Source of the DNA: an uncultured Pelagibacteraceae bacterium
GTDB taxonomy: Bacteria; Pseudomonadota; Alphaproteobacteria; Pelagibacterales; Pelagibacteraceae
Reading direction: 5' to 3'
NCBI GenBank assembly: GCA_902610675.1
Contig: CACLWP010000007.1
Span: forward strand, 1 to 60,491
Length of the DNA: 60,491 nt
The notes under the pieces are model-generated. The model was not told the DNA's origin, did no database searches, and saw nothing but the letters and a program-made list of their open reading frames with translations. Position numbers and translations under genes: made by a program. Every line of letters starts with the position of its first letter. The first letter of the stretch is position 1. Below are positions 7,496 through 43,452 of the stretch, in pieces.

Positions 7496-7744
7496 ATGAA
7501 AAATTCTAAATTTGTCTTTGATAAAATCGCAAAACTACTAGAACAAGGATTAATTTCCTCAAGAGATTTAGCAAATGAATTGGTTAATGTTCTTAAGTCA
7601 AAAAGAGAGGAAATTGTATTCAAAATGAAATTAACAAGTAAAGAAGAATTTGATATTTTATCAAAAAGAGTAGAGTTACTTGAAAAAAAATTGAATAAAG
7701 ATCATCTTAAATTAAAAAAAACTAAACGGGTAAAAAAATCTTAA
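7496..7744 (+). CDS. ubiK: UbiK/BMFP-domain accessory protein (YqiC-like)
   Basis: 82 aa. It has an N-terminal helix (FDKIAKLLEQGL), a central helix with REE, and a C-terminal coiled coil (LSKRVELLEKKLNK) ending in a basic tail, the layout of the BMFP/UbiK family. In Enterobacteria UbiK helps the ubiquinone hydroxylase complex and binds membranes. The identification rests on length and heptad pattern as much as on identity. Its 3' end overlaps the convergent histidine kinase gene by 23 bp. Confidence 0.65.
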   Translation: MKNSKFVFDKIAKLLEQGLISSRDLANELVNVLKSKREEIVFKMKLTSKEEFDILSKRVELLEKKLNKDHLKLKKTKRVKKS

Positions 7745-9041
7745 CCTCAAGACCATTTAAGAATGATTTATCAAGCTTAATATTTCCACCATGAGACCTT
7801 ACGATATCAGAAGCTATTGATAGTCCTAAACCTACACTTGATTTAGAGTCTGATCTCCCCTTATCTATTTTATAAAAAGGTTTAAAAACATTTTCATATT
7901 CACTTTCTGGTATACCTGGACCGTCGTCCTCGACTTTAATAATTAAACTCGTTTTTTTCTTGTAAAGCTCAATATTTAATTTTTTGCCATATTTAATGGA
8001 ATTATCAATTAAATTGTTAAGACATCTTTTTATTAAATTTTTTCTTCCATTAAAATAAATTTTTGCTGGAATACTTTTTAAAATATTTTTGTTGTTATAT
8101 TTCATTATTATTTCATTCATTAATCCACTAAGATTGAAAAGTTCATCTTTTTCAACAAATGACGAACTAGTAAATTGCAAATATTCATTCAGCATTTTTT
8201 CCATTTCATTAATATCTTCAGTTAGTTTATTTGCCAAAAGCTTATCTTTTATAAATGCAGTTTGTAGCTTCATTCTTGTTAAAGGAGTTCTTAAATCGTG
8301 ACTAATTCCTGAAAGCATTTCCGATCTTTGGTTGAGATGTCTCGTTATTCTTTTTCTCATCCTATCAAATTCATAACCAGCTTGACGAATTTCCGCTGCA
8401 CCAGAAGGTTTAAATTCGTCAACGTTTTCACCTCTTCCAAATTTTTGAGCAGCTTTGGCTAATGCAGTAATTGGCCTTGTTTGATTTTTTAAAAAAATCA
8501 AAGATATGATCACAACTATAAAAGCTGGAACAGTGATCCATAATCCGAACAATCTTGCAGATGTACTTGTAAGTCTATCTTTTGGAACTATAAATTTGAA
8601 ATATCCATTTTGAAATTTTATACGTAAATCAACTAATTCCTCATAGTTGATGGTATTAAACCAAAATATTTCTGACCCAAATTTGGATTTTAACTCTCTC
8701 CTTAAAGTTCTATCAATTGGACTAAACCATCTTTCGTTAAAGAGAAAATTGAAATTATCATCTTCAATAAATTCAATATTCAAATCTTGATACAAGGAAA
8801 AAATATTCTTTATTTCATCTTTTTCATATTCGTCATTACTGTAAACTTCAATAAAAGTTTGTATTTCACCAACAAGAGCCCTTGTCATACCTTTATTCGT
8901 TTTAATCCAAAGACTGTCAAAAAATACAATAGTGATTGTTAATTGAATTAAAATTATTGGGACAGCTACTATTAGAAGAGCTCTATAGAATAATCTTTTT
9001 GGTAATAAATTTTTAAAAAATTTACTCAATCCATAAAACAT
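7722..9041 (-). CDS. EnvZ-like sensor histidine kinase
   Basis: 439 aa. Two membrane helices (about 20-45 and 170-190) flank a ~125-residue periplasmic domain; a HAMP linker follows (RPITALAKAAQKF), then the H-box SGISHDLRTPLTRMKLQ (phospho-His near residue 250), the N-box NLIDNSIKYG, and G-boxes EDDGPGIP and VGLGLSIA. It overlaps the preceding response-regulator gene by 20 bp. The signal it senses cannot be read from the sequence. The partner is almost certainly the regulator encoded just upstream. Confidence 0.93.
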   Translation of the reverse strand: MFYGLSKFFKNLLPKRLFYRALLIVAVPIILIQLTITIVFFDSLWIKTNKGMTRALVGEIQTFIEVYSNDEYEKDEIKNIFSLYQDLNIEFIEDDNFNFLFNERWFSPIDRTLRRELKSKFGSEIFWFNTINYEELVDLRIKFQNGYFKFIVPKDRLTSTSARLFGLWITVPAFIVVIISLIFLKNQTRPITALAKAAQKFGRGENVDEFKPSGAAEIRQAGYEFDRMRKRITRHLNQRSEMLSGISHDLRTPLTRMKLQTAFIKDKLLANKLTEDINEMEKMLNEYLQFTSSSFVEKDELFNLSGLMNEIIMKYNNKNILKSIPAKIYFNGRKNLIKRCLNNLIDNSIKYGKKLNIELYKKKTSLIIKVEDDGPGIPESEYENVFKPFYKIDKGRSDSKSSVGLGLSIASDIVRSHGGNIKLDKSFLNGLEVKIFLPV

Positions 9042-30234: not shown

Positions 30235-30309
30235 GGGCCGTTAGCTCAATAGTAGAGTACTGCATTGACATTGCAGGGGTAGTTGGAGCGTAACCAACAC
30301 GGCCCACCA
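30235..30309 (+). tRNA. tRNA-Val (GAC), with atypical D and T loops
   Basis: A full cloverleaf folds with perfect stems: acceptor GGGCCGT/ACGGCCC, D stem GCTC/GAGT, anticodon stem CTGCA/TGCAG around loop TTGACAT (anticodon GAC), T stem GTTGG/CCAAC, and an encoded CCA end at 30307-30309. The D loop (AATAGTA) lacks the GG pair and the T loop reads AGCGTAA instead of TTCGANT. It begins three bases after the rpoD stop. Perfect stems argue that it is a functional gene rather than a pseudogene. Confidence 0.85.
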
Positions 30310-30316
30310 ACAAATT

Positions 30317-31174
30317 TTATTTCTGGATTTCCTTAAAAATTTTTCTTATCTTGAAATTATCAAGTAAATTAAACAAAAAATTTCTGTAAAATAATTTTCT
30401 AGTAACTTTTCTAAAAAAAGTTTTTTTACTGAGGAAATCATATTCTGCATCAAGCTTACTTTTAAATTCTCTAAAGTACTCATTATGTCTATAATCTATT
30501 GCCCATTCATTTTTAGCATCATTTTTGACCTCTTTGTTTGAAAAACATTTTTTCGTATCAATAGAAAAAACTACTATTGACTCAAAGAATTCTACAAAAA
30601 ATATTTTCTTCGCATAAAAATTTAAGTTCCTATTCAATAATGGGGATCTTCTATGGATAATATCAATAATTTTTTTGGCATAATTTATAAAAGAATATTT
30701 TGAGGGATTGTAAAATTCTCTTTTTACATAGCTTACGCTCGTATCCTCAACAACTATTTTTCCACCGTCTCTAATGTGTGGCAATGAGTAATGTACAGTG
30801 CTGATTTGTTGTAAGTTTTTGTGACCGCCATCATCTAAAATAACATCAATTTTTCCCTCTTTTTTATAAAAGTTATCCCAAAAATTTTTATCACTTTGAT
30901 TGCCTATATAAACTTTAAATCCGTATTTTTCTAATTTCTTTGCATTAGGGTTTAAATCTATGCCAATTATTTTTGCCTTTTTACCAAAGAATTTTTGCCA
31001 CATAAATAATGATCCACCATTAGCTACTCCTATTTCTACAAATTTAATTTTCTTATTTCTATATTTTGAAAATATCTTTTCATAAACTTGAAAGTAGCTA
31101 CTCCACTTAATTGAAAATTTTTTTGATTTTTTAAATAATTTATATATCTCAAGTTTTTTTGTACTTTGATTCAT
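30317..31174 (-). CDS. Class I SAM-dependent methyltransferase (macrocin O-methyltransferase-like)
   Basis: 285 aa from the ATG at 31174; a TTG 17 codons upstream is in frame but less likely. The Rossmann SAM motif is FVEIGVANGGSLFMWQKFF, then GIDLNPNAK, the acidic IDVILDDGGHKNLQQI, and GGKIVVEDTS. This set is typical of the MycE/CmcI-like sugar or macrolide O-methyltransferases often found in surface-polysaccharide regions. The C-terminal third is very basic and not recognised. It lies just outside the left end of the tRNA-bounded island and points toward tRNA-Val. Confidence 0.7.
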   Translation of the reverse strand: MNQSTKKLEIYKLFKKSKKFSIKWSSYFQVYEKIFSKYRNKKIKFVEIGVANGGSLFMWQKFFGKKAKIIGIDLNPNAKKLEKYGFKVYIGNQSDKNFWDNFYKKEGKIDVILDDGGHKNLQQISTVHYSLPHIRDGGKIVVEDTSVSYVKREFYNPSKYSFINYAKKIIDIIHRRSPLLNRNLNFYAKKIFFVEFFESIVVFSIDTKKCFSNKEVKNDAKNEWAIDYRHNEYFREFKSKLDAEYDFLSKKTFFRKVTRKLFYRNFLFNLLDNFKIRKIFKEIQK

Positions 31175-31269
31175 AAATTTATATATAACCGAAAAACCAA
31201 TAATAATGATATTAAAATATCTCAACTTGCGTGGTAAAGAAAAACATCGTAAACATCAATATTAATTTT

Positions 31270-31309
31270 GGGCCTGTAGCTCAGTTGGTTAGAGCAGTAC
31301 ACTCATAAT
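31270..31309 (+). pseudogene. Truncated tRNA(CAT) 5' half; left attachment repeat
   Basis: These 40 nt are identical to the 5' end of the intact tRNA at 43376 and stop at the first base of the 3' strand of the anticodon stem. The following sequence is unrelated to a tRNA 3' half. It marks the left boundary of the island and probably retains the original upstream flank of the tRNA gene. Confidence 0.9.
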
Positions 31310-31384
31310 TTACGACTCAAAAAAATATCTTAAATAAGTATTGAAAATCAACCTCCATTAGAGAAGTTTTTTTTCAATTAAAAT

Positions 31385-31414
31385 TTACCAACTATTTACC
31401 AACGAATCCAATTA
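31385..31414 (+). repeat. Left inner repeat, two TTACCAAC units
   Basis: 30 nt containing two TTACCAAC/TTTACCAAC units and ending CAATTA. It matches the copy at 43263-43293 in the same orientation with a one-base length difference and a few substitutions. It sits 75 bp inside the left boundary, where an integrase arm-type binding site would be expected. The rest of 31310-31473 holds an 8-bp inverted repeat (ATTGAAAA 31340-31347 / TTTTCAAT 31371-31378) and no gene. Confidence 0.6.
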
Positions 31415-31473
31415 TCCACACAATTTAACTGCTTTATATTTTGGATTTTTTTTAGTGAGATGTATAAGAACTT

Positions 31474-32502
31474 ATGCTCTCAGTTAATGATTTTTTTTCA
31501 GGTTGTGGTGGTCTTTCACAGGGTTTTAAAGAGGCAGGATTTAAAATTCAAGTTGCTGTAGACAAAGAGGAAGCATTTTTAAAAACTTTTTCGCATAACT
31601 TTAAAGGCTCTCAAACAAAAAATTTAGACTTAGGTGATAGTAATATTCTTAAAGATATTCCTAAATCAGATGTAATTATTGCTGGCCCTCCTTGCCAAGG
31701 ATTTTCTCTTACTGGACCAAGAAATATTGATGATCCAAGAAATAAATTATACTTGTCAGTTTTTAAGACTTTGAAATTAACAAATCCAAAAGCTTTTGTA
31801 GTGGAGAATGTAAGAGGCTTAAAAACTATGTGGGATGGAAATGTTTTTAAAGAGATAATTAAAAAATTTGAAAGTGCAGGATATATAGTTACCGAAAGTT
31901 TATTAAATTCAGCTGATTATGGAGTTCCACAAATTAGACATAGAGTATTTATTGTAGGTATTAAGAAAGAACTAAATAAAAAATTCGAATTTCCAAAACC
32001 AGAATTTGATAAAGATAATTATATAACATGTGGTGAGGCTATTGATAATCTACCTAGTCTTGAGAATGGAGAATTAAAAAGTATTAATTATAATGAAAAA
32101 CCGACAACAAACTTTCAAAGGTATGTAATGGACTGTAATAAACTTTATAATCATGAGGCTACATTGCACAAACAATTTGTAAAGGAAACAATAGCTTTAG
32201 TTCCAGAAGGCGGTAATTACAAAGATCTACCAAAAGGAGTAGGCGATAGCAGAAAGTTTAATGAGGCGTGGACTAGATATCATAGTAAAAAACCCTCAAG
32301 AACAATAGATACAGGTCACAGAAATCATTTTCATTACAAATGGAATAGAGTGCCAACAATCAGGGAAAATGCTAGACTTCAATCCTTTAAGGATAGTTTT
32401 GAATTTTTAGGAACAAAAACTTCTCAAAATGTTCAGGTAGGAAATGCTGTACCACCTTTATTAGCATTTAAAATTGCAAAAGAACTTAAAAAATTTCTTT
32501 AA
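31474..32502 (+). CDS. C5-cytosine DNA methyltransferase 1
   Basis: 342 aa, a complete Dcm-type enzyme. Motif I FFSGCGGLSQGF (residues ~7-18), motif IV GPPCQGFS with the catalytic cysteine, motif VI VENVRG, motif VIII QIRHRVFIVG, a variable target-recognition region (~185-285), and motifs IX/X ENARLQSF and GNAVPP are in order. It methylates cytosine C5 in DNA; the target sequence cannot be read from the protein. The stop overlaps the next methyltransferase start by one base (TAATG), and it opens the island's restriction-type cluster. Confidence 0.95.
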   Translation: MLSVNDFFSGCGGLSQGFKEAGFKIQVAVDKEEAFLKTFSHNFKGSQTKNLDLGDSNILKDIPKSDVIIAGPPCQGFSLTGPRNIDDPRNKLYLSVFKTLKLTNPKAFVVENVRGLKTMWDGNVFKEIIKKFESAGYIVTESLLNSADYGVPQIRHRVFIVGIKKELNKKFEFPKPEFDKDNYITCGEAIDNLPSLENGELKSINYNEKPTTNFQRYVMDCNKLYNHEATLHKQFVKETIALVPEGGNYKDLPKGVGDSRKFNEAWTRYHSKKPSRTIDTGHRNHFHYKWNRVPTIRENARLQSFKDSFEFLGTKTSQNVQVGNAVPPLLAFKIAKELKKFL

Positions 32503-33647
32503 TGAGTATCAAATTTATAGATTTATTTTCAGGTTGCGGTGGTTTAACAGAAGCTTTTTTAAATAATAAAAAATTCTCCCCAATAAAAATTATTGATAAT
32601 GATAAATTTTGCTATGACACTACAATTCATAGACTTAAAAAACTTAAATTTAAAAATCCTGAAAAAATTGCAGAACACAAGGATATTTCAAGCAATAAAA
32701 CAATTAATGATTTCAAAAATATTAAGTCAGATATTGTGATTGGAGGGCCTCCATGTCAGGCTTATTCAGTAGCTGGTAGAATTAGAGATAAGCATGGTAT
32801 GAAAAAAGATTATAGAAATTACCTTTTTGAGTCATTTCTTAAGATTATAAATTATAGCCAACCTAAGTATTTTGTTATGGAGAATGTTCCAGGAATGCTA
32901 AGTGCGAAACCAGGAAATATAAAAGTTACAGCTAGAATTAAGAAAGAAACAGATAAAATAAAATATTATATCCCTGAAAATTTATCTGAATGTATATTTG
33001 ATTTATCTAAATACGGTGTACCTCAGAAAAGGAAAAGAGTGATTATATTTGGGGTAAATAAAAAGTTAAAAAACTATAAATCAATATCTAAGAAATTTTA
33101 CGAAACTTTAAGATCCCAAGAACTTAAAAAAACAATTACTGTAAAACAAGCGATAGGAGATTTGGATAAATTTTATCCATTAAATAAAATTACAAAGATT
33201 AATGGAAGAAAATTTTCCCACAAATCAAATTCAAAAAAACTAGATCATTACCCAAGATTTCATAATCAGAGAGATATGAAGATTTTTAAACTCTTAGCTG
33301 AAGATATAGAGAAAAAAAAATTTAAATATAAAACAGTAAAAGAGCTACAAAAACTTTATACAAGAATTGTTGGAAAAAAATCTAATATTCATAAATATTA
33401 TGTGCTTAGAAAAGATGAGCCCAGTAATCTTATACCTTCACATTTATATAAAGATGGATTGAGACACATTCATTATGACTCTAAGCAAGCAAGATCAATT
33501 ACTGTTAGAGAAGCTGCAAGACTTCAATCTTTCCCAGACAATTTTGAGTTTATTGGACCAATGACCGAGCAATACAAAATGATCGGTAATGCAGTTCCAC
33601 CAAATTTTTCAAAATTTTTAATGAAGACAATTGTTAAGTTAAGATAG
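32502..33647 (+). CDS. C5-cytosine DNA methyltransferase 2
   Basis: 381 aa, also complete: motif I LFSGCGGLTEAF, motif IV GGPPCQAYS, motif VI MENVPG, motif VIII QKRKRVIIFG, motifs IX/X EAARLQSFPDNF and GNAVPP. The variable region (about 190-310) is longer and unlike that of methyltransferase 1, so the two should recognise different strands or sites. Tandem C5 enzymes coupled by a TAATG junction often serve one restriction system with an asymmetric site. It converges with the HNH gene, which ends 2 bp away. Confidence 0.95.
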   Translation: MSIKFIDLFSGCGGLTEAFLNNKKFSPIKIIDNDKFCYDTTIHRLKKLKFKNPEKIAEHKDISSNKTINDFKNIKSDIVIGGPPCQAYSVAGRIRDKHGMKKDYRNYLFESFLKIINYSQPKYFVMENVPGMLSAKPGNIKVTARIKKETDKIKYYIPENLSECIFDLSKYGVPQKRKRVIIFGVNKKLKNYKSISKKFYETLRSQELKKTITVKQAIGDLDKFYPLNKITKINGRKFSHKSNSKKLDHYPRFHNQRDMKIFKLLAEDIEKKKFKYKTVKELQKLYTRIVGKKSNIHKYYVLRKDEPSNLIPSHLYKDGLRHIHYDSKQARSITVREAARLQSFPDNFEFIGPMTEQYKMIGNAVPPNFSKFLMKTIVKLR

Positions 33648-33648
33648 A

Positions 33649-34572
33649 CTATCTTGGCATTTTAAGTTTACCAAAAATTTCTTTATTGTGAAAAGTAATA
33701 TTTTTAATTGAAGGCCAAAACTTTCTCTCTTTTGGAAGTGTAACTTTTTTTCCTTCGTACTTTCCTAAAAAACCATCTTTCATCTTTTTGTGAACTCTTA
33801 TTTCATAGCTTTGATCTATCGTAAAACAGCCTCTGTCAAAAGCCCAATGGAAATCAAGGGACATAAGCATACCATTATCTGCGGAATGATTTCCATTAAA
33901 TTGCCAAGGTTTAATATGTGCTGCTTGACAATTTATAGTTTCACCTGTGTCAATGGACTCACCTGTAATACAACACTTATGATCGTAAATATCTCTTATC
34001 GCATATCTGAATTCTGCTTGATTAGAATATATGTCATGTATATTTCTGGCTAAGCGATCAGAAATTCTAGTTGTAGTTTTTTTCGATATTGTGGCTTCTT
34101 TATAAGTTCTATCTTCAGTGTTAATAAAATCTAAATTATCAAATATTAAATGGTTTGTTTGGTTAGTTATTTTCTCAAGTAAATCATATTGTTTATGATC
34201 AGGAGTGAATCTGTATAAAATATATTTTGTCTCTTTATCTTCTGTGTCAGTAAATCTAAAAAATACAATATAATATCCTGGTTTAAAAAATTCTCCATTT
34301 GGATCAATCTCTTCATTTAAATAAATTCTTCTATCATTACCTCTATGTCCAGATTCTGGATCGTTATCATGCGTATATTCGGCGTGTACCAAATGTTTCA
34401 TTTCATCTATTATTATTCCTAAAGACATACTTGGATCTATTTCGTCAGTTTTGTGAGGTGGAAAAAAATCAGCTCTTTTTTTTGAAACTAGTAAAAATTT
34501 ACCGGCTTTGTTAGGTATTCCTTTTCTGTACCCTAATTCATTATCGTATAATTTTTTTACGTAAAAACTCAT
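33649..34572 (-). CDS. HNH endonuclease (restriction-type)
   Basis: 307 aa. The C-terminal half has an HNH domain: CCITGESIDTGETINCQAAHIKPW (first HN-type His in AAHIKP), then NGMLMSLDFHWAFDRGCFTI, the asparagine and second histidine of the HNH_2-type restriction nucleases. The N-terminal ~150 residues are not recognised and may bind the target site. It is the only gene of this cluster on the minus strand, wedged between the methyltransferases and the Z1 ATPase gene; its start is 108 bp from that of the Z1 gene. It is probably the restriction enzyme guarded by the two methylases. Confidence 0.82.
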   Translation of the reverse strand: MSFYVKKLYDNELGYRKGIPNKAGKFLLVSKKRADFFPPHKTDEIDPSMSLGIIIDEMKHLVHAEYTHDNDPESGHRGNDRRIYLNEEIDPNGEFFKPGYYIVFFRFTDTEDKETKYILYRFTPDHKQYDLLEKITNQTNHLIFDNLDFINTEDRTYKEATISKKTTTRISDRLARNIHDIYSNQAEFRYAIRDIYDHKCCITGESIDTGETINCQAAHIKPWQFNGNHSADNGMLMSLDFHWAFDRGCFTIDQSYEIRVHKKMKDGFLGKYEGKKVTLPKERKFWPSIKNITFHNKEIFGKLKMPR

Positions 34573-34680
34573 TCATTTAATTATGTCATGTAAATAAATT
34601 TGCTTCAAAAGGATTATACGTAAGCTTAAAAAGACTTGTAATACTTAATAAATTTATGGTTTAATTATAAAATTTATTTT

Positions 34681-37668
34681 ATGGCTGATTTAAAAGAGAC
34701 AATATACCGTAAACTTTTCAATGTAGCTCTAACAAATATTGAAACTGTAAAAACTGAGGATAAATCACTTGAAAGAGTAAAATTGTCTGTGGAAGCGGCG
34801 TTACAATTTCTACAACAACCAAAAGACTATCCATTTAAAGATAAATTAATTTTACAATTATTTGAAAACATTTCAGTTAAAAGCTCAAGTTCCGCAATTA
34901 TTAAAAGTGAGAATGATCATATAGATTGGTATGATAAAAATAAAGATAGACCTTATTGGGAAACATATAGAGAATATTTAAAAAGCGATAAGCAATTTTC
35001 GCCTGACGCTGTATCAGCTCTAGATAAAACTACTGATATGATGATGCGAAATATAGAAGATCCAAATAGAGAAGGCGCTTGGGATTCAAGAGGCTTAATA
35101 GTTGGAAGTGTTCAATCTGGAAAAACTTCAAACTTTATAGGTTTTTTAAATAAAGCCATAGATGCTGGCTATAAGAAGATTATCATTCTTTCAGGTTTAA
35201 ATAAAAATTTAAGACAACAAACACAATTAAGAATCGACGAAGGTCTACTCGGCTATGATACTGCATTTATGAAAAATGGTGTCAGAGATTTAAAAGGACC
35301 GTTAGCAAGAAAAAGAATGATGTTAAATTTGAAACCAATTCATTCAGCGACTAATAGTAAAATTAATGGAGATTTCAAATTTACAGCAGCAGAACACTTC
35401 ATGAATATTCATACGGATGAACCAACGGTATTTGTTGTAAAAAAAAATAAAAGTATTTTGGAAAGTGTTATAAAATATTTTTTAAATGCTCCTTCAGTCC
35501 ACGGTGTGAGTGTTGACTCAAAACCATTCAAAATTAGAGGTCACCAAGGAGATTACAATTCCTTTATCAAAGATAGACCAATATTAGTAATTGATGATGA
35601 GGTAGATAATGGATCTGTAGACACTGGTGAACAAAAATTAGATGAAAAGGGGGAGTTTGATCCTGAATACGATCCAAAAACAATTAATTCAAGAATTAGA
35701 CAAATTTTAAATATATTCGAAAAAAAAGTATATATTGGATATACAGCAACACCATTTGCTAATATTTTTATTCATCACGAAAAAAAAACGAAGGAAGAGG
35801 GTTTAGATCTTTTTCCGAAGGATTATATCATTGATTTACCTATTCCGTCTAACCATAGTGGTTTAGAAAAAATATTTAACATTGAAAAAGTTGATGGTGA
35901 CGTTATTGAGGATAGAGAAATTGACGATAACTATTTTTTTAATATTGTAAAAGATAATTCTTTGTATCATGATGATCCCGATTGTGCAGAGGGCTGGATA
36001 CCACCTCGTCATAATCGTTATCATATACCGAAATATGAGTATAAGAATGATGATGAAGTTCCTATTCCACCTTCTTTAAGAGAGGCAATAATGTCTTTTA
36101 TTTTAACTTCAGCCTGTAGAAACTTCAGAGGTTATGTTGAGGATGGAAAGTCCATGCTAATTCATGTTAGTAAATTTCAAGATGTTCAAGATATAGTTTA
36201 CAAACAAGTGAGTGATTATATGGATGTTTTACGAAGTCGTATGCAAGCCGGTCACTATCTTCATGACGAAACTATCTCAAAATTTGAGGAAATTTGGCAA
36301 AAGAATTTTTATATTCATAAAGATCAAACTGAGGAAAAAATGCCAACATGGCAAGATCTACTAGATCACAAATATAGTCTTAAATTTGTTGTTAATGAAA
36401 TATGCCAAAATATTAAAATTTTGAATGGAAAGAGTGACGATACACTTGATTATGAAAATTTTTTTAATGAAAATAATTTTGGTTTACACACAATCGTAAT
36501 CGGTGGAGATAAATTATCTAGAGGAATAACATTGGAAGGATTAAGTATAAGCTACTTTCTTCGTTCAGCAAAAATGCCAATGTATGACACGTTAATGCAA
36601 ATGGGTCGGTGGTTTGGGTATAGAATGGGATATGAAGATCTTTGCAGATTATACACTACTGAAAATGTTATTAAGTGGTTCTTTCATATTTCAGTTGCAA
36701 CTGAGGAAATGAGAAATTCATTTAGAATTATGGCTCAACAAGGCGCAACACCATTGGAATTTGGGTTAAAAGTAAGAACTAATCCAAATTTAATTATTAC
36801 ATCCAAGACTAAAATGAGAAGTGCACGTAAAGAAAGAACTTCATTTTCAAGAGAGGTGGAAGAAATAATTACTTTTGAAAAAAACAACGAGGTTATAAAA
36901 TCTAACTTTAACGCAATTAATGAATTTCTTTTAGATATGGATAAGCCTACTATTTCTGGAGAATATGATAATGGTCTTCAAAAGTGGAAAAATTCTTATA
37001 TATGGAAAAATGTTGATCCTAAAAATGTAATTAAATTTCTAAAAAGTTATAAAAAGTTTGAAGATTCAAGAACTTTAGGATGTAAGGAGTATGTAGATTA
37101 TATCAAAAATTTAAACAGTTTTGGGGAACTAACTAATTGGACAATTTGCTTACATGGAAGTGGTTCTTCAAAAGTAAATGAAACTTTTGCTAATAAACAT
37201 AAAGTTGAACTTTTATTAAGAACACCTTCAAATCAAAAAAATGAATCCAAAATAAGTCTTAAAGTGATTACTCAACCAAGAGATGAGCTAATTGGGTTAG
37301 AGGACTCTGAAATAGATGACTATAAAAATAGTCTCCAAAATTTTACAAAAACTCATGATCCTGTGACTGATGAAAAAACCATTATGCAGGCTAGAAGAGA
37401 GCTTGCAAGATATCATAGAAGTGAAAAACGCGGATTATTAAATTTGTACCCAATTTTAGGTGTTACAAATTTATCATCGTATAAAAAATATAAAGGTTAC
37501 AAAAATAGCAAGGGAAATAGCGTTGAGGGGCATCATGATGTTAAAAAAATTGATCCCAATCATTTAACAAAACATCCCTTGATAGGTTTTCAATTAAGTT
37601 TTCCAGTTTCAAAAATGGGAGATAAAGCAGCCATAGAGTACATGGTAAATTCAATTTACTCAGAATAA
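34681..37668 (+). CDS. Z1-domain superfamily II ATPase
   Basis: 995 aa. Walker A is IVGSVQSGKTSNFIGF, Walker B-like DDEVDNGS in PILVIDDEVD, motif III IGYTATPFANIF, and late motifs GGDKLSRGITLEGL plus LMQMGRWFGYR; together with the intervening region this is the Z1 domain architecture. Z1 ATPases are found in bacterial defence loci next to DNA methyltransferases and nucleases, in some cases together with MORC-like GHKL ATPases, which are absent here. The C-terminal ~250 residues are unrecognised. Neighbouring methylases and HNH nuclease make it part of the same defence system by inference. Confidence 0.88.
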   Translation: MADLKETIYRKLFNVALTNIETVKTEDKSLERVKLSVEAALQFLQQPKDYPFKDKLILQLFENISVKSSSSAIIKSENDHIDWYDKNKDRPYWETYREYLKSDKQFSPDAVSALDKTTDMMMRNIEDPNREGAWDSRGLIVGSVQSGKTSNFIGFLNKAIDAGYKKIIILSGLNKNLRQQTQLRIDEGLLGYDTAFMKNGVRDLKGPLARKRMMLNLKPIHSATNSKINGDFKFTAAEHFMNIHTDEPTVFVVKKNKSILESVIKYFLNAPSVHGVSVDSKPFKIRGHQGDYNSFIKDRPILVIDDEVDNGSVDTGEQKLDEKGEFDPEYDPKTINSRIRQILNIFEKKVYIGYTATPFANIFIHHEKKTKEEGLDLFPKDYIIDLPIPSNHSGLEKIFNIEKVDGDVIEDREIDDNYFFNIVKDNSLYHDDPDCAEGWIPPRHNRYHIPKYEYKNDDEVPIPPSLREAIMSFILTSACRNFRGYVEDGKSMLIHVSKFQDVQDIVYKQVSDYMDVLRSRMQAGHYLHDETISKFEEIWQKNFYIHKDQTEEKMPTWQDLLDHKYSLKFVVNEICQNIKILNGKSDDTLDYENFFNENNFGLHTIVIGGDKLSRGITLEGLSISYFLRSAKMPMYDTLMQMGRWFGYRMGYEDLCRLYTTENVIKWFFHISVATEEMRNSFRIMAQQGATPLEFGLKVRTNPNLIITSKTKMRSARKERTSFSREVEEIITFEKNNEVIKSNFNAINEFLLDMDKPTISGEYDNGLQKWKNSYIWKNVDPKNVIKFLKSYKKFEDSRTLGCKEYVDYIKNLNSFGELTNWTICLHGSGSSKVNETFANKHKVELLLRTPSNQKNESKISLKVITQPRDELIGLEDSEIDDYKNSLQNFTKTHDPVTDEKTIMQARRELARYHRSEKRGLLNLYPILGVTNLSSYKKYKGYKNSKGNSVEGHHDVKKIDPNHLTKHPLIGFQLSFPVSKMGDKAAIEYMVNSIYSE

Positions 37669-37717
37669 GAACACATTAAAGCCCTAATACTACCAAACAG
37701 AAGTGTTATAGAAAGAA

Positions 37718-38092
37718 ATGCGCTTTGCCGTTGCTTTTTTTACAATTTTTATTCCCCAAATTTTGTTTGCAGATCAAGGAGTAAAAATTTCCTGTGTGAA
37801 TATGAAAAACTTACTTGATCAAAGCTATAAAATTCACAAATTCAAATTTGATGTTACGACCTTCCAGTATTTTGATGAAAAGGAAAGTAAATATATTGAA
37901 ATACCCAATAAAGACTTAACAATTAAAAAAGATTTTTTTGGAGCCAGGTTTCCAGAATATGAATTAGGTTTTCAAATAAATGAGTTTGAGGGAAAAAACC
38001 CTGTAATGTCTATGTCAAAATATGATTATAAAAATGATAAATTTTTAGATCATTATTTATGTGATGTAAAAAATACGTATATCCAACACTAA
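37718..38092 (+). CDS. Small secreted protein of unknown function
   Basis: 124 aa. The first ~18 residues (MRFAVAFFTIFIPQILFA) form a signal peptide with a plausible cleavage after Ala18. The mature part is ~106 residues with two cysteines (in ISCVNMK and LCDVKN) that could form a disulfide in the periplasm, and it is rich in Phe, Tyr and Lys. No family is recognised. It lies 49 bp after the Z1 gene and its end overlaps the convergent 112-aa gene by 4 bp. Confidence 0.6.
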   Translation: MRFAVAFFTIFIPQILFADQGVKISCVNMKNLLDQSYKIHKFKFDVTTFQYFDEKESKYIEIPNKDLTIKKDFFGARFPEYELGFQINEFEGKNPVMSMSKYDYKNDKFLDHYLCDVKNTYIQH

Positions 38093-38427
38093 ATATCTTC
38101 ATTATGCCATGTAAAAAGGTCGGCTTCAAAAGGAATATTTCTAAATTTTAGTAATGCTTTATATTTTTTAAGTCTGTCCTCTTTTTTAGCACTTTTTAAG
38201 TATGTGAGGATTTCATCGTAGGTAAGTCCTTTCAGCTTATCTTTTTTCACATCAACATATTCCTCATATTCCATACCTGCTATTGCATAGCCTTTATTAG
38301 GATCTATGTGTTCTGCATAACTAATAGTGTCTTCAGTTTCTTTAAGGATATCGTACCAGTGAGCAACCTGATTTTTATTATCAAAAAGATAATCTTTTCT
38401 GTAATCAAACAGTTCTAACTGCTGCAT
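38089..38427 (-). CDS. Hypothetical protein, 112 aa
   Basis: No family recognised. It opens with MQQLELFDYRKDYLFDNKNQVAHWYDIL, carries a D/E-rich centre, and ends in a helix (YDEILTYLKSAKKEDRLKKYKALLKF). No signal peptide or membrane helix is seen, so it is probably cytoplasmic. It is convergent with the secreted protein gene. Composition is ordinary for coding sequence and it has a clean ATG, which supports it as a real gene. Confidence 0.55.
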   Translation of the reverse strand: MQQLELFDYRKDYLFDNKNQVAHWYDILKETEDTISYAEHIDPNKGYAIAGMEYEEYVDVKKDKLKGLTYDEILTYLKSAKKEDRLKKYKALLKFRNIPFEADLFTWHNEDI

Positions 38428-38574
38428 ATTTTTGAAGTATTTAAATTAAGAAAATTGATTAACAATTAATAATATAATTTTTAATTATGTCTTAAGTATG
38501 ATAAGATTAATTAGTCCTGATTTAGAACATAACTCTACTTGCTAGGACTTAAAATAAAACGCTAAAGGAGAAAC

Positions 38575-38748
38575 ATGAAAATAAAAATACAATCAATAAG
38601 AGACTTTTTTAAATCCAAAGAAAAAAAAGGATTAAAACCAATATTTTTTGAAAGTATTGGAGATCAAAATACTTCAAGAGATGAAAGGCTAAAGAATCTG
38701 ATAAAAATTCTAGAAAAAAATGGATTTAAAATTAAAAATAAAAAATAA
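38575..38748 (+). CDS. Small basic protein, 57 aa
   Basis: A 57-codon frame starting at ATG 38575, preceded by a strong AAGGAG ribosome binding site (38565-38570) four bases away. It starts MKIKIQSIRDFFKSKEKKG and ends GFKIKNKK; it is strongly basic, soluble and unrecognised. The strong Shine-Dalgarno is the main reason to accept a gene this short; most core genes here lack one. It precedes a hairpin-rich non-coding stretch and the nuclease pair. Confidence 0.55.
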   Translation: MKIKIQSIRDFFKSKEKKGLKPIFFESIGDQNTSRDERLKNLIKILEKNGFKIKNKK

Positions 38749-38822
38749 TTATTTAAATTGAAATTTATTTTTTAATTATTATATTAATATTGTTGGTTAA
38801 TAAGACTATTTATTAACGTTTA

Positions 38823-39028: not shown

Positions 39029-39289
39029 ATGAAAAAAAATAAGCCAGATTTAAATGTTAATGAAAAATTAGTTAAAATGTTTGAGGATCAAATCCCAGAA
39101 GATCGTCAACAAGTCTTAAGAGATATTGATAGTATTATGTGCAATATGTTTGAATTGCAGCCAAACGATTTACCTTGGATAAATCCTAACAAACATGAGG
39201 AAAAATGGGAAAATCTTATGAATAATTTAAGATTAATTGTTGGTAAGATAGAATACGAAAGTAAGAGAAAAACAAGGACGGTGCATTAA
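39029..39289 (+). CDS. Hypothetical protein, 86 aa, partner of nuclease
   Basis: 86 aa, unrecognised, probably helical and cytoplasmic. It has a strong GAGAAAGGA ribosome binding site four bases before the ATG. It contains FEDQIPEDRQQVLRDIDSIM and a Trp-rich patch (LPWINPNKHEEKWENLM), ending with a basic tail. The stop overlaps the PD-(D/E)XK nuclease start by one base (TAATG), so it is translated together with that nuclease and may be its regulator or cofactor. Confidence 0.6.
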   Translation: MKKNKPDLNVNEKLVKMFEDQIPEDRQQVLRDIDSIMCNMFELQPNDLPWINPNKHEEKWENLMNNLRLIVGKIEYESKRKTRTVH

Positions 39290-40152
39290 TGATTGATTTA
39301 AAAAGAGATGACAAAGGTAACCTGAAAAATGCAACTGGCTTAAATTCACAAAAATGGAGATGTTATAAGCCTGGTCAAGAAAAAGATTTCTCAGTCAGCA
39401 GAAGTAGATTTGAGGATTTTTCTAAATGTCCTAGATGTTTTTATTTAAGAATGGTGAAATGCCTTCAGCAGCCAGAAGGCCCACCATTTAGGCTAAACGA
39501 ACTTACAGATACTTTGTTAAAGAAAGAATTTGATGAGTGTCGAAAAAATAAAAAATCTCATAGAAAGCTAATAGAAAAAGGTCTAGATCATATTATTCCA
39601 TTTGACGGTGGCACCGAGATATTAACAAATAGTAAAAATGAAAAAAAAGAATGGCAAGTTATAGATATATGGCGAGATGCAAGAAGCAAGGGTATCAAAT
39701 CTAGGTTTAAAGATACAAATATAATTTTACAAGGTGGTGTGGATGATGTTTGGTTTAATACTAAAACTAAAGAATTAATTATAGTAGATTATAAATCTCA
39801 GGCCAGTAATGAAGATGTCTCTCAAGATACATATTTTCAAAAGTGGCACCACGATGGATATAAAACTCAGCTAAATTTTTATGCATATATAATGAAAAAT
39901 ATGAAATTGGAATTTGATATATCCAAAGATAGTTATTTGTATGTGGTAAATGGATTAGAATTAGAGGAAGGATTTAATAGTCAGATTAAATTTTCTGAGA
40001 CATTGATTCATCATAAAATAGAGACAGATTATCTGGAAGATAAAATTCAAAAGATGATTGATACAATGAATTCAACTAAAACCCCTAAAGGACATGAAAG
40101 TTGTAAAAATTGTGCTTATGCAAGACAAAGATCAATAATTGATAAGCTATGA
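39289..40152 (+). CDS. PD-(D/E)XK nuclease, RecB/Cas4-like with cysteine pairs
   Basis: 287 aa. The N-terminal SRSRFEDFSKCPRCFYLRM resembles the SxSRLxxFxxCPRxFYxR opening of RecB/Cas4-type nucleases. The catalytic residues appear as GGVDDVWFNTKTKELIIVDYKSQ: the first Asp pair, then Asp-Tyr-Lys. A QLNFYAYIM helix follows (QxxxY motif). Cys47/Cys50 at the N-terminus and a CKNC pair near the C-terminus could hold an iron-sulfur cluster, as in Cas4 and AddB. There is no cas gene or CRISPR in the window. The target is unknown; a defence role is inferred from the island setting. Confidence 0.75.
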   Translation: MIDLKRDDKGNLKNATGLNSQKWRCYKPGQEKDFSVSRSRFEDFSKCPRCFYLRMVKCLQQPEGPPFRLNELTDTLLKKEFDECRKNKKSHRKLIEKGLDHIIPFDGGTEILTNSKNEKKEWQVIDIWRDARSKGIKSRFKDTNIILQGGVDDVWFNTKTKELIIVDYKSQASNEDVSQDTYFQKWHHDGYKTQLNFYAYIMKNMKLEFDISKDSYLYVVNGLELEEGFNSQIKFSETLIHHKIETDYLEDKIQKMIDTMNSTKTPKGHESCKNCAYARQRSIIDKL

Positions 40153-43375: not shown

Positions 43376-43452
43376 GGGCCTGTAGCTCAGTTGGTTAGAG
43401 CAGTACACTCATAATGTATTGGTCCCAGGTTCGAGTCCTGGCGGGCCCACCA
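43376..43452 (+). tRNA. tRNA with CAT anticodon (Met or Ile2)
   Basis: A canonical cloverleaf: acceptor GGGCCTG/CGGGCCC, D arm GCTCAGTTGGTTAGAGC, anticodon loop CTCATAA, T arm CCAGG-TTCGAGT-CCTGG, and encoded CCA. The anticodon CAT could be elongator Met or, after lysidine modification by TilS, Ile2; the GGGCCTG acceptor stem resembles alphaproteobacterial tRNA-Ile, which favours Ile2. It lacks initiator features (no C1:A72 mismatch, no GGG/CCC anticodon stem). Its 5' 40 nt are the right copy of the island repeat. Confidence 0.93.

What the first reader, a model, noticed from the sequence alone, without database searches (positions are those of the whole stretch)
34681..37668. Z1 ATPase combined with two C5 methylases and an HNH nuclease: candidate variant defence system
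Seen: a 995-aa Z1-type ATPase (GSVQSGKT, DDEVD, QMGRWFGYR) beside two complete C5 cytosine methyltransferases and an HNH nuclease, all inside a tRNA-bounded island (cluster 31474-37668). Known: Z1 ATPases occur in restriction-type loci with methylases, often with GHKL/MORC-like ATPases and PD-(D/E)XK nucleases. Inference: this set lacks the GHKL partner and uses an HNH nuclease instead, so it may be a distinct composition with an ATP-driven step.
Basis: partly seen in the sequence, partly recalled or inferred. Interest (0 to 1): 0.7.

Follow-up and report, generated by a model that had tools for sequence, protein, structure and literature searches.

The report
Marine bacterium's restriction cassette plus motor
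In a streamlined ocean bacterium (SAR11), a DNA-cutting and DNA-marking defence cassette that can stand alone sits next to an ATP-burning DNA motor gene that elsewhere mostly belongs to a larger defence system, suggesting that motors and cutters are swapped as modules.

Summary
In detail: a 995-aa DEAD-Z1 ATPase lies beside two intact C5 methyltransferases and an HNH nuclease in a laterally transferred, tRNA-Met-bordered SAR11 island. The GHKL-less composition is real. The window's Z1 belongs to a supported clade in which 0 of 9 loci (0 of 5 with long flanks) show a GHKL ATPase; GHKL was found in 13 of 14 loci of two other Z1 clades of the order and 16 of 18 other Pseudomonadota loci. Six of the nine (three of four lineages) have an HNH nuclease nearby, with three dissimilar N-terminal halves. 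But the four genes are not obligate partners: a genome rated 100% complete in the same order carries the same M1-M2-HNH cassette without a Z1 match. Best reading: a Type IIS-like R-M module with an exchangeable partner, a MzaC-class Z1 motor. The characterised parallel is CglI/NgoAVII, where a smaller DEAD-Z1 subunit drives a PLD-B3 nuclease. Whether this Z1 powers HNH cleavage is untested; I give about 40%. New variant of a known kind.

The parts
31474..32502 (+). M1, C5-cytosine DNA methyltransferase, 342 aa, complete
   Evidence: PF00145 E 3e-73; 57% identical to G121 M1, 54% to a Lactococcus lactis plasmid methylase
32502..33647 (+). M2, C5-cytosine DNA methyltransferase, 381 aa, complete; start shares one base with the M1 stop
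   Evidence: PF00145 E 1.9e-59; 67% identical to G121 M2, 43% to the neighbouring L. lactis methylase
33649..34572 (-). HNH restriction nuclease, 307 aa: N-terminal part of unknown family (about 1-150, presumed target recognition) + HNH_2 (200-253; H219, N233, H242 read as active-site residues)
   Evidence: PF13391 E 9e-11; PADLOC HNH / Type II restriction enzyme; full-length relative in G121, 39%; alignment
34573..34680 (.). 108-bp divergent intergenic region between HNH and Z1
   Evidence: ORF coordinates; in 31200-38800 promoter-like matches are no more frequent than in shuffles
34681..37668 (+). DEAD-Z1 (SF2 helicase-like) ATPase, 995 aa, MzaC class
   Evidence: PF10593 E 4e-72; PADLOC MzaC 1e-177; NCBIfam MzaC 703 bits, below cut-off; tree
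31270..31312 (+). Copy of the first 43 nt of tRNA-Met: probable left border of the island (att-like)
   Evidence: direct repeat D7, 98%
43376..43452 (+). tRNA-Met (CAT): probable right border of the island
   Evidence: ARAGORN; repeat D7
30235..30309 (+). tRNA-Val (GAC) after rpoD: outer left flank
   Evidence: ARAGORN; also at the left flank in L022
37718..38427 (.). Two small genes (124 aa +, 112 aa -) that travel with the Z1 block; membership doubtful
   Evidence: both in L022, L023 and, by similarity, L021; relatives occur elsewhere in SAR11, also without this Z1
39289..40152 (+). Cas4-like PD-(D/E)XK nuclease, 287 aa; possible but unproven accessory
   Evidence: PF12705 E 6e-13; relative (67%) directly beside Z1 in G660; but 12 of 200 relatives, own genome included, match it and two cases looked at show no Z1 nearby

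Best explanation
A modular anti-DNA defence. M1, M2 and the HNH protein form a self-sufficient Type IIS-like restriction-modification cassette: two C5 methylases (probably one for each strand of an asymmetric site) protect the host, and the HNH protein recognises the unmethylated site through its N-terminal part and cuts with its C-terminal HNH domain. The adjacent, divergently transcribed 995-aa DEAD-Z1 ATPase is a motor of the MzaC class, related to those of MZA/paraMORC-type systems, but without their GHKL and AIPR genes; it now travels with exchangeable R-M modules in laterally moving SAR11 islands. Most likely it works like the H/N subunit of CglI/NgoAVII: loaded at an unmodified site by the nuclease, it hydrolyses ATP, moves along DNA and triggers or multiplies cleavage. 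Shown: gene content, intactness, purifying selection, lateral transfer, lack of a detected GHKL/AIPR gene in the clade, the cassette without Z1 in another genome. Inferred: target asymmetry, role of the HNH N-terminal part, loss as the direction of change, and the coupling of Z1 to HNH (about 40%).
For: R-M core stands alone: G121 (rated 100% complete, 9 contigs) has M1-M2-HNH in the same convergent layout (57/67/39% identity) and no Z1 match. M1-M2 relatives in tandem on L. lactis p275D are convergent with a PLD-B3 (RE_NgoFVII) nuclease; M1 relatives on Photobacterium and Acinetobacter plasmids lie near BpuJI_N nucleases. Z1: window, SAG-MED19, G595, G660, G037 form a clade of FastTree support 1.00. 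With two later additions and near-identical loci, 0 of 9 clade loci have GHKL or AIPR (0 of the 5 with about 8 kb on both sides) and 6 of 9 have an HNH gene within 8 kb; 13 of 14 loci of the two other Z1 clades of the order have GHKL and 0 of 14 HNH. In the 200 relatives both genomes with window-clade Z1 (G000, G037) have HNH_2 directly beside it; HNH_2 occurs in 8 of the other 198. HNH and Z1 lie in one tract of 96-100% identity to L022, while the methylases are 93-94% identical. Homology to a working system: a gonococcal locus of C5 methylase + PLD-B3 nuclease + 629-aa Z1 aligns with the window's Z1 (23% over 569 columns, two-sequence E 2e-22) across the Walker A, DDE and DT..Q..R.FGY motifs; the acidic pair is at residues 150-151 of that ORF, the numbers of the N.NgoAVII residues whose mutation abolished ATPase and cleavage (PMC4267653).
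Against: No direct evidence that Z1 and HNH interact. The cassette stands without Z1 in G121, and a G595-type HNH + C5 methylase in G081, which had no Z1 match (73% complete). Z1 of the same clade stands without a recognised HNH in G660 and G1023. The nine clade loci are four lineages: G1073 Z1 is 99.9% identical to G037, G1023 80% to G595; window, L021, L022, L023 are one. In G595 HNH is 3.2 kb from Z1 with three genes between. AIPR is also absent in all 8 loci of the 835-861-aa SAR11 clade and in 5 of 18 other Pseudomonadota loci, so its absence is not special. The HNH N-terminal part could not be identified (AlphaFold mean pLDDT 29 and 38; no match to the L. lactis PLD-B3 nuclease). The window's Z1 is only about 23% identical to the NgoAVII motor and lies in another branch. 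Four of the nine loci are cut by contig ends close to Z1.
Confidence: 0.5

Rival explanations
1. Two independent defences side by side: a complete Type IIS-like R-M (M1-M2-HNH) and a separate Z1 effector that shares only the island, or at most uses the methylation as its self-mark.
For: The cassette occurs without a Z1 match in G121, and a G595-type HNH + C5 methylase in G081. In the same Z1 clade the neighbours differ: G595 and G037 HNH share detectable similarity with the window's only in the C-terminal half, and G660/G1023 have other genes. Many Z1 loci carry C5 methylases with other partners.
Against: In this clade an HNH gene is within 8 kb of Z1 in 6 of 9 loci (three of four lineages), although HNH_2 was found in only 10 of 200 relatives; HNH and Z1 share one identity tract; I know of no described way for a Z1 protein to act without GHKL, AIPR or DUF4420 partners, whereas with a nuclease there is one (CglI/NgoAVII).
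Confidence: 0.35
2. A decaying MZA-type locus: the Z1 gene is a remnant of a system that lost GHKL, DUF4420 and AIPR, kept by chance in the island.
For: G595, G1023 and G660 have DUF4420 next to Z1, the window and G037 do not, which could be stepwise loss in genomes under streamlining.
Against: Z1 is intact and under strong purifying selection (dN/dS 0.067 at dS 0.67); the ATPase motifs are kept in the five aligned members; it was recently transferred between SAR11 lineages (Z1 99.1% identical against 82.5% for rpoD).
Confidence: 0.07
3. The HNH protein is a modification-dependent (Type IV, McrA/SBD-like) nuclease, not the partner of M1-M2.
For: Its C-terminal half matches the NCBIfam model of phosphorothioate-binding nucleases (66.8 bits, cut-off 180) and the PDB sequence 6yex (HNH endonuclease, 3e-06) and, insignificantly, TagI (0.18).
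Against: The similarity covers the C-terminal half; no other Pfam family was reported for this protein or for its G121 relative, unlike the SRA-HNH protein of G163; the protein stays with M1-M2 in the same layout in G121.
Confidence: 0.08

Closest known systems
CglI / NgoAVII ATP-dependent restriction systems (R2H2/R2N2 complexes)
   Same: C5 methylase + separate nuclease + separate DEAD-Z1 ATPase, no GHKL; homologous ATPase motifs; M1-M2 relatives pair with the same PLD-B3 nuclease family in L. lactis
   Different: Nuclease is HNH, not PLD-B3; two methylases instead of one; Z1 is 995 aa and of the MzaC branch (about 23% identity); Z1 is divergent from the nuclease gene; no biochemistry here
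MZA (mzaABCDE) and Z1-DUF4420-C5 methylase systems (MORC/paraMORC-type RM, PMC2292703; PMC9523054)
   Same: Z1 protein is of the MzaC class (PADLOC 591 bits; NCBIfam 703 bits), C5 methylase adjacent; DTLMQMGRWFG fits the DThhQXuRhFG motif of PMC2292703
   Different: No MzaB, D or E found in the window's neighbourhood; the only match to my MzaA (sigma factor) profile is the rpoD gene beside the island, which I take as housekeeping; the DUF4420-type nuclease, a core gene of all variants in PMC9523054, is absent
Type IIS HNH restriction-modification (e.g. HpyAV; HphI, MnlI, Eco31I as HNH enzymes)
   Same: HNH nuclease with two methylase activities, usual for asymmetric-site systems (PMC2816704, passages)
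   Different: Both methylases are C5 here (HpyAV uses C5 + N6A); site unknown; extra Z1 motor
Corynebacterium diphtheriae BH8 island: EcoRII-like nuclease + Z1 helicase + C5 methylase + DUF4420 (PMC5379612, passages)
   Same: Type II-like nuclease with Z1 and a C5 methylase in one island
   Different: EcoRII-like nuclease and DUF4420 instead of HNH; other phylum

Membership tests
CglI/NgoAVII-type ATP-dependent R-M | C5 methylase in the locus | tested here: met
   two, PF00145
CglI/NgoAVII-type ATP-dependent R-M | DEAD-Z1 ATPase with intact motifs, homologous to N.NgoAVII | tested here: met
   23% over 569 columns, two-sequence E 2e-22, motifs aligned, against a gonococcal locus with the NgoAVII domain set
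CglI/NgoAVII-type ATP-dependent R-M | R protein with PLD nuclease + B3 DNA-binding domains (PF09565 + PF20731) | tested here: not met
   R candidate is HNH_2 with unidentified N-terminal part
CglI/NgoAVII-type ATP-dependent R-M | ATP-dependent cleavage by a nuclease-motor complex | not testable with these tools
   needs purified proteins
MZA system | MzaC (Z1) above the curated cut-off | tested here: not met
   703 bits, cut-off 1500; none of 398 genomes of the phylum passed it either; PADLOC match strong
MZA system | MzaB GHKL ATPase, MzaD, MzaE AIPR in the locus | tested here: not met
   none near Z1 in the window; 0 of 9 clade loci for GHKL and AIPR, 3 of 9 have DUF4420
Z1-DUF4420-C5 methylase system (PMC9523054) | three core genes Z1, DUF4420, C5 methylase | tested here: not met
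   DUF4420 absent in window; present in G595, G660 and, by my profile, G1023
Type II (IIS-like) R-M | methylase(s) plus nuclease as an autonomous cassette | tested here: met
   same trio without a Z1 match in G121; activity not tested
Type II (IIS-like) R-M | asymmetric site, cut at fixed distance | not testable with these tools
   inferred from two methylases and from the nuclease types of M1/M2 relatives

The most novel reading that the evidence does not exclude
An ATP-dependent restriction enzyme of a new build: an HNH nuclease of Type IIS style driven by a MzaC-class DEAD-Z1 translocase taken from an MZA/paraMORC-type system. It would have arisen independently of CglI/NgoAVII (PLD-B3 nuclease, small Z1), with one Z1 lineage in SAR11 serving a series of exchangeable R-M modules, so that Z1 is a portable motor that turns ordinary Type II enzymes into ATP-dependent ones.
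Probability: 0.35. Interest if true: 0.7.

Novelty: new variant of a known kind. Interest (0 to 1): 0.5.

Why it matters
It gives a natural with/without comparison (M1-M2-HNH in G121 without Z1 and in the window with it) that makes the role of Z1 ATPases in restriction directly testable. The role of the Z1 protein inside MZA-type systems is not explained in the passages read here; a stripped-down set of four genes is a simple place to find it. It also shows that even streamlined SAR11 genomes move modular restriction systems between lineages on a tRNA-Met island.

Tried and rejected
Fold of the HNH protein (three nearly identical sequences, mean pLDDT 29) and of its first 140 residues (pLDDT 38): too poor to search, so no fold search was made. 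Viral contigs: no relative of Z1 or HNH confirmed. Phage records: Z1 matches in 6 short unannotated 'Bacteriophage sp.' records from human faeces and HNH matches in 8, not followed up. PDB by sequence: nothing significant for Z1; for the nuclease 6yex, chiefly its HNH region. PHROGs: no family for Z1. Promoter/terminator scan: no excess over shuffles. Hypothesis that the Cas4-like gene 39289-40152 is a fixed part: a 67% relative abuts Z1 in G660, but 12 of 200 relatives match it and the two cases looked at (G143, G042) show no Z1 nearby; left open. Hypothesis that the HNH N-terminal part is homologous to the B3 domain of the L. lactis nuclease: no signal. My own GHKL profile hit one window ORF weakly (7722-9041, 8e-07), some 25 kb from Z1; not counted. 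In one search L077 and L078 (and plasmid L132) count as without GHKL by profile, but each has a 612-633-aa neighbour whose first residues look to me like a GHKL N-box (Pfam none and PADLOC PDC-M33A for the L078 protein). My role profiles were built by three rounds of inclusion from a few seeds and miss some genes: the AIPR of L061 (Pfam) and annotated HNH genes in L054 and L128 were not counted.

Rows dropped before counts; of 24 other genomes with a match, 18 were examined; G349 (contig end) and G306, G483, G541, G570, G575 (weak) were not; of 51 plasmid records, 20 were examined for composition, and one more as the NgoAVII comparison; of 21 other genomes, 20 were fetched; G078 (weak) was not, and G810, G663, G063 (636-638 aa) are in none of the groups. 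From, G053 and G094 (weak, open frames of 875 and 851 aa) were not fetched. The tree leaves out L021, L022, L108, L125; G1023 and G1073 were found later and are placed by identity: G1023 80% to G595, G1073 99.9% to G037.
Full report
WHAT IS THERE. The four genes are real and intact at the stated places: M1 31474-32502 (+), M2 32502-33647 (+), HNH 33649-34572 (-) and Z1 34681-37668 (+). Pfam confirms two C5 methylases, an HNH_2 domain at residues 200-253 of the 307-aa protein, and a Z1 domain at residues 465-703 of the 995-aa protein. PADLOC and NCBIfam both point to MzaC for the Z1 protein, the latter below its cut-off. M1 and M2 share one base at their stop/start; HNH runs against M2; HNH and Z1 diverge from a 108-bp spacer. 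The named records with close relatives are uncultured Pelagibacteraceae/Pelagibacterales, i.e. SAR11.

THE ISLAND. tRNA-Val (30235-30309) follows rpoD, and tRNA-Met (43376-43452) lies at the right end. A copy of the first 43 nt of tRNA-Met at 31270-31312 makes a direct repeat of 98% identity with the real gene, as expected of an integrated island. The block 31260-38747 is 96.8% identical to the named record AH-326-O21 (L022), while the rpoD side is 80% identical. In that pair rpoD has dS 1.6, M1 and M2 0.27 and 0.32, HNH 0.035 and Z1 0.043, and windows of 250 bp show the step in identity at about 33.7 kb, between M2 and HNH. So the block moved between SAR11 lineages, and HNH and Z1 share one recent tract. 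Selection is purifying in all four (dN/dS 0.04-0.08).

THE Z1 LINEAGE. Of 200 relatives 11 have a Z1-type match, and only two, the window's own genome and G037, have the close type. Of 397 genomes of the order 22 have a PF10593 match, and of 399 of the genus 12 match the clade profile at 1e-20. Neighbourhoods were fetched. A FastTree tree of 58 Z1 proteins puts the window with SAG-MED19, G595, G660 and G037 at local support 1.00, next to a Terribacillus plasmid gene (0.96); deeper nodes are partly weak. G1023 and G1073 were added later by identity, so the nine clade loci are four lineages: window type, G595/G1023, G660, G037/G1073. Counts within 8 kb of Z1: window clade, GHKL 0 of 9, AIPR 0 of 9, DUF4420 3 of 9, C5 methylase 7 of 9, HNH 6 of 9. 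Four loci (L021, L023, L163, L164) are cut close to Z1; the five with long flanks (window, L022, L107, L109, L062) show 0 of 5 for GHKL and AIPR. Clade of 1073-1092 aa in the same order: GHKL, DUF4420, AIPR and C5 methylase 6 of 6, HNH 0 of 6. Clade of 835-861 aa: GHKL 7 of 8 (the eighth ends 97 bp from Z1), DUF4420 5 of 8, AIPR 0 of 8, C5 methylase 7 of 8, HNH 0 of 8. Other Pseudomonadota genomes: GHKL 16 of 18, DUF4420 18 of 18, AIPR 13 of 18, C5 methylase 17 of 18, HNH 1 of 18. Plasmids: GHKL 13 of 20, DUF4420 16, AIPR 12, C5 methylase 15, HNH 0. What sets the window clade apart is thus the missing GHKL and the HNH modules; a missing AIPR is common. Outside SAR11, GHKL-less Z1 loci with Type II nucleases also occur: Priestia aryabhattai (DUF4420, AlwI-type nuclease, C5 methylase) and a Helicobacter plasmid (HaeIII nuclease, C5 methylase).

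THE R-M MODULES ARE EXCHANGEABLE. The HNH proteins of the window, G595 and G037 share detectable similarity only in their C-terminal half. The methylases of G595 are 32-38% identical to the window's where they align. In G037 HNH abuts Z1; in G595 three genes (DUF4420 and two methylases) lie between them. The window's own module is found in G121, a genome of another family of the order rated 100% complete: M1 57%, M2 67%, HNH 39% identical in the same layout, between what read as housekeeping genes, and without a Z1 match. An HNH protein 57% identical over its whole length to that of G595 sits beside a C5 methylase in G081 without Z1 on its 3.5-kb contig; that genome had no Z1 match either, but it is 73% complete. 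In the 200 relatives HNH_2 is found in 10 genomes; both genomes with the close Z1 are among them. Outside SAR11 the M1-M2 pair has its best tandem match among the plasmids on Lactococcus lactis p275D (54% and 43%), convergent with a PLD-B3 nuclease of the NgoFVII family; M1-like genes of Photobacterium and Acinetobacter plasmids lie near BpuJI_N nucleases. Enzymes that read asymmetric sites frequently need two methylases (PMC2816704, passages); BfiI is described as Type IIS in PMC4267653, that BpuJI is Type IIS is recalled.

HOW IT PROBABLY WORKS. The studied parallel is CglI/NgoAVII: C5 methylase, PLD-B3 nuclease R and a separate DEAD-Z1 protein. The nuclease binds the site, the Z1 protein hydrolyses about 170 ATP per second, and cutting needs both (PMC4267653, introduction and first part of the discussion; PMC5737866, abstract and conclusion). 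I fetched a gonococcal locus with exactly these domains (C5 methylase, PF09565 + PF20731, 629-aa Z1). Its Z1 protein aligns with the window's at 23% over 569 columns, including the Walker A, DDE, GG...RG and DT..Q..R.FGY motifs; the acidic pair is at residues 150-151, the numbers the paper gives for the N.NgoAVII mutations that abolished ATPase and cleavage. By analogy the window's Z1 would be loaded by HNH at an unmethylated site, translocate, and trigger cutting. This coupling is inference. The cassette in G121 suggests that this HNH family does not need Z1 in general, just as the PLD-B3 nuclease beside the M1-M2 relatives in L. lactis has no Z1 annotated within the 11 kb seen. A recruited motor would convert such an enzyme into an ATP-dependent one; an independent neighbour would not. 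I put coupling at about 40%.

WHAT IS KNOWN. A 2008 paper (PMC2292703, abstract and passages; Iyer et al., authors recalled) described operons of MORC/paraMORC GHKL ATPases with an SF2 helicase bearing DThhQXuRhFG, which fits the window's DTLMQMGRWFG, with a new nuclease, cytosine methylases and Vsr; Candidatus Pelagibacter is in a figure's abbreviations. A 2022 paper (PMC9523054, section 11) defined a core of Z1 + PD-(D/E)XK nuclease (written there as DUF4220) + C5 methylase. A 2017 paper (PMC5379612, passages) noted an EcoRII-like nuclease, Z1, C5 methylase and DUF4420 in one C. diphtheriae island. The window departs from each: no GHKL, no AIPR, no DUF4420, HNH instead. My searches of the held library listed no title or abstract start that describes an HNH + Z1 + two C5 methylase set; the lists were capped, and subscription papers are mostly missing (the 2018 paper on the CglI motor is not held; its title was seen in a reference list).

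VERDICT. New variant of a known kind, of middling interest, with a clean experiment available.

Noticed in passing
window 39289-40152: Cas4-like PD-(D/E)XK nuclease gene; a 67% relative abuts Z1 in G660 (L109) and another lies 2.9 kb from Z1 in L023, but 12 of 200 relatives match it and two cases looked at show no Z1 nearby.
   Followed up: partly
window 37718-38092 and 38089-38427: Two small unknown genes (124 and 112 aa) that accompany the Z1 block in L021-L023; relatives of the 112-aa gene occur at other SAR11 loci (L111, L115, L120, L163, L167).
   Followed up: partly
L115 and L122: Two other SAR11 Z1 loci lie within 6 kb of an rpoD-like 607-aa gene; in the window the island also starts beside rpoD, so this may be a shared insertion hotspot.
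   Followed up: no
L163 4489-5643: 384-aa protein of no Pfam or PADLOC family between DUF4420 and two C5 methylases in G1023, whose relative G595 has an HNH module: candidate unknown nuclease.
   Followed up: partly
L123, L124, L125: Third SAR11 Z1 type of 636-638 aa (about the size of the NgoAVII motor) without recognised methylase or nuclease beside it, but with a divergent 148-167-aa gene.
   Followed up: no
L178 5980-7176: SRA + HNH_2 protein (PF02182, PF13391), probably a modification-dependent nuclease, in G163.
   Followed up: no
window 30317-31225: Methyltransf_24-type gene between tRNA-Val and the left island border, absent at that place in L022.
   Followed up: no
phage records H41-H46: Six short 'Bacteriophage sp.' records from human faeces encode Z1 relatives (29-37% identity); not annotated, nature of the records unclear.
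   Followed up: no
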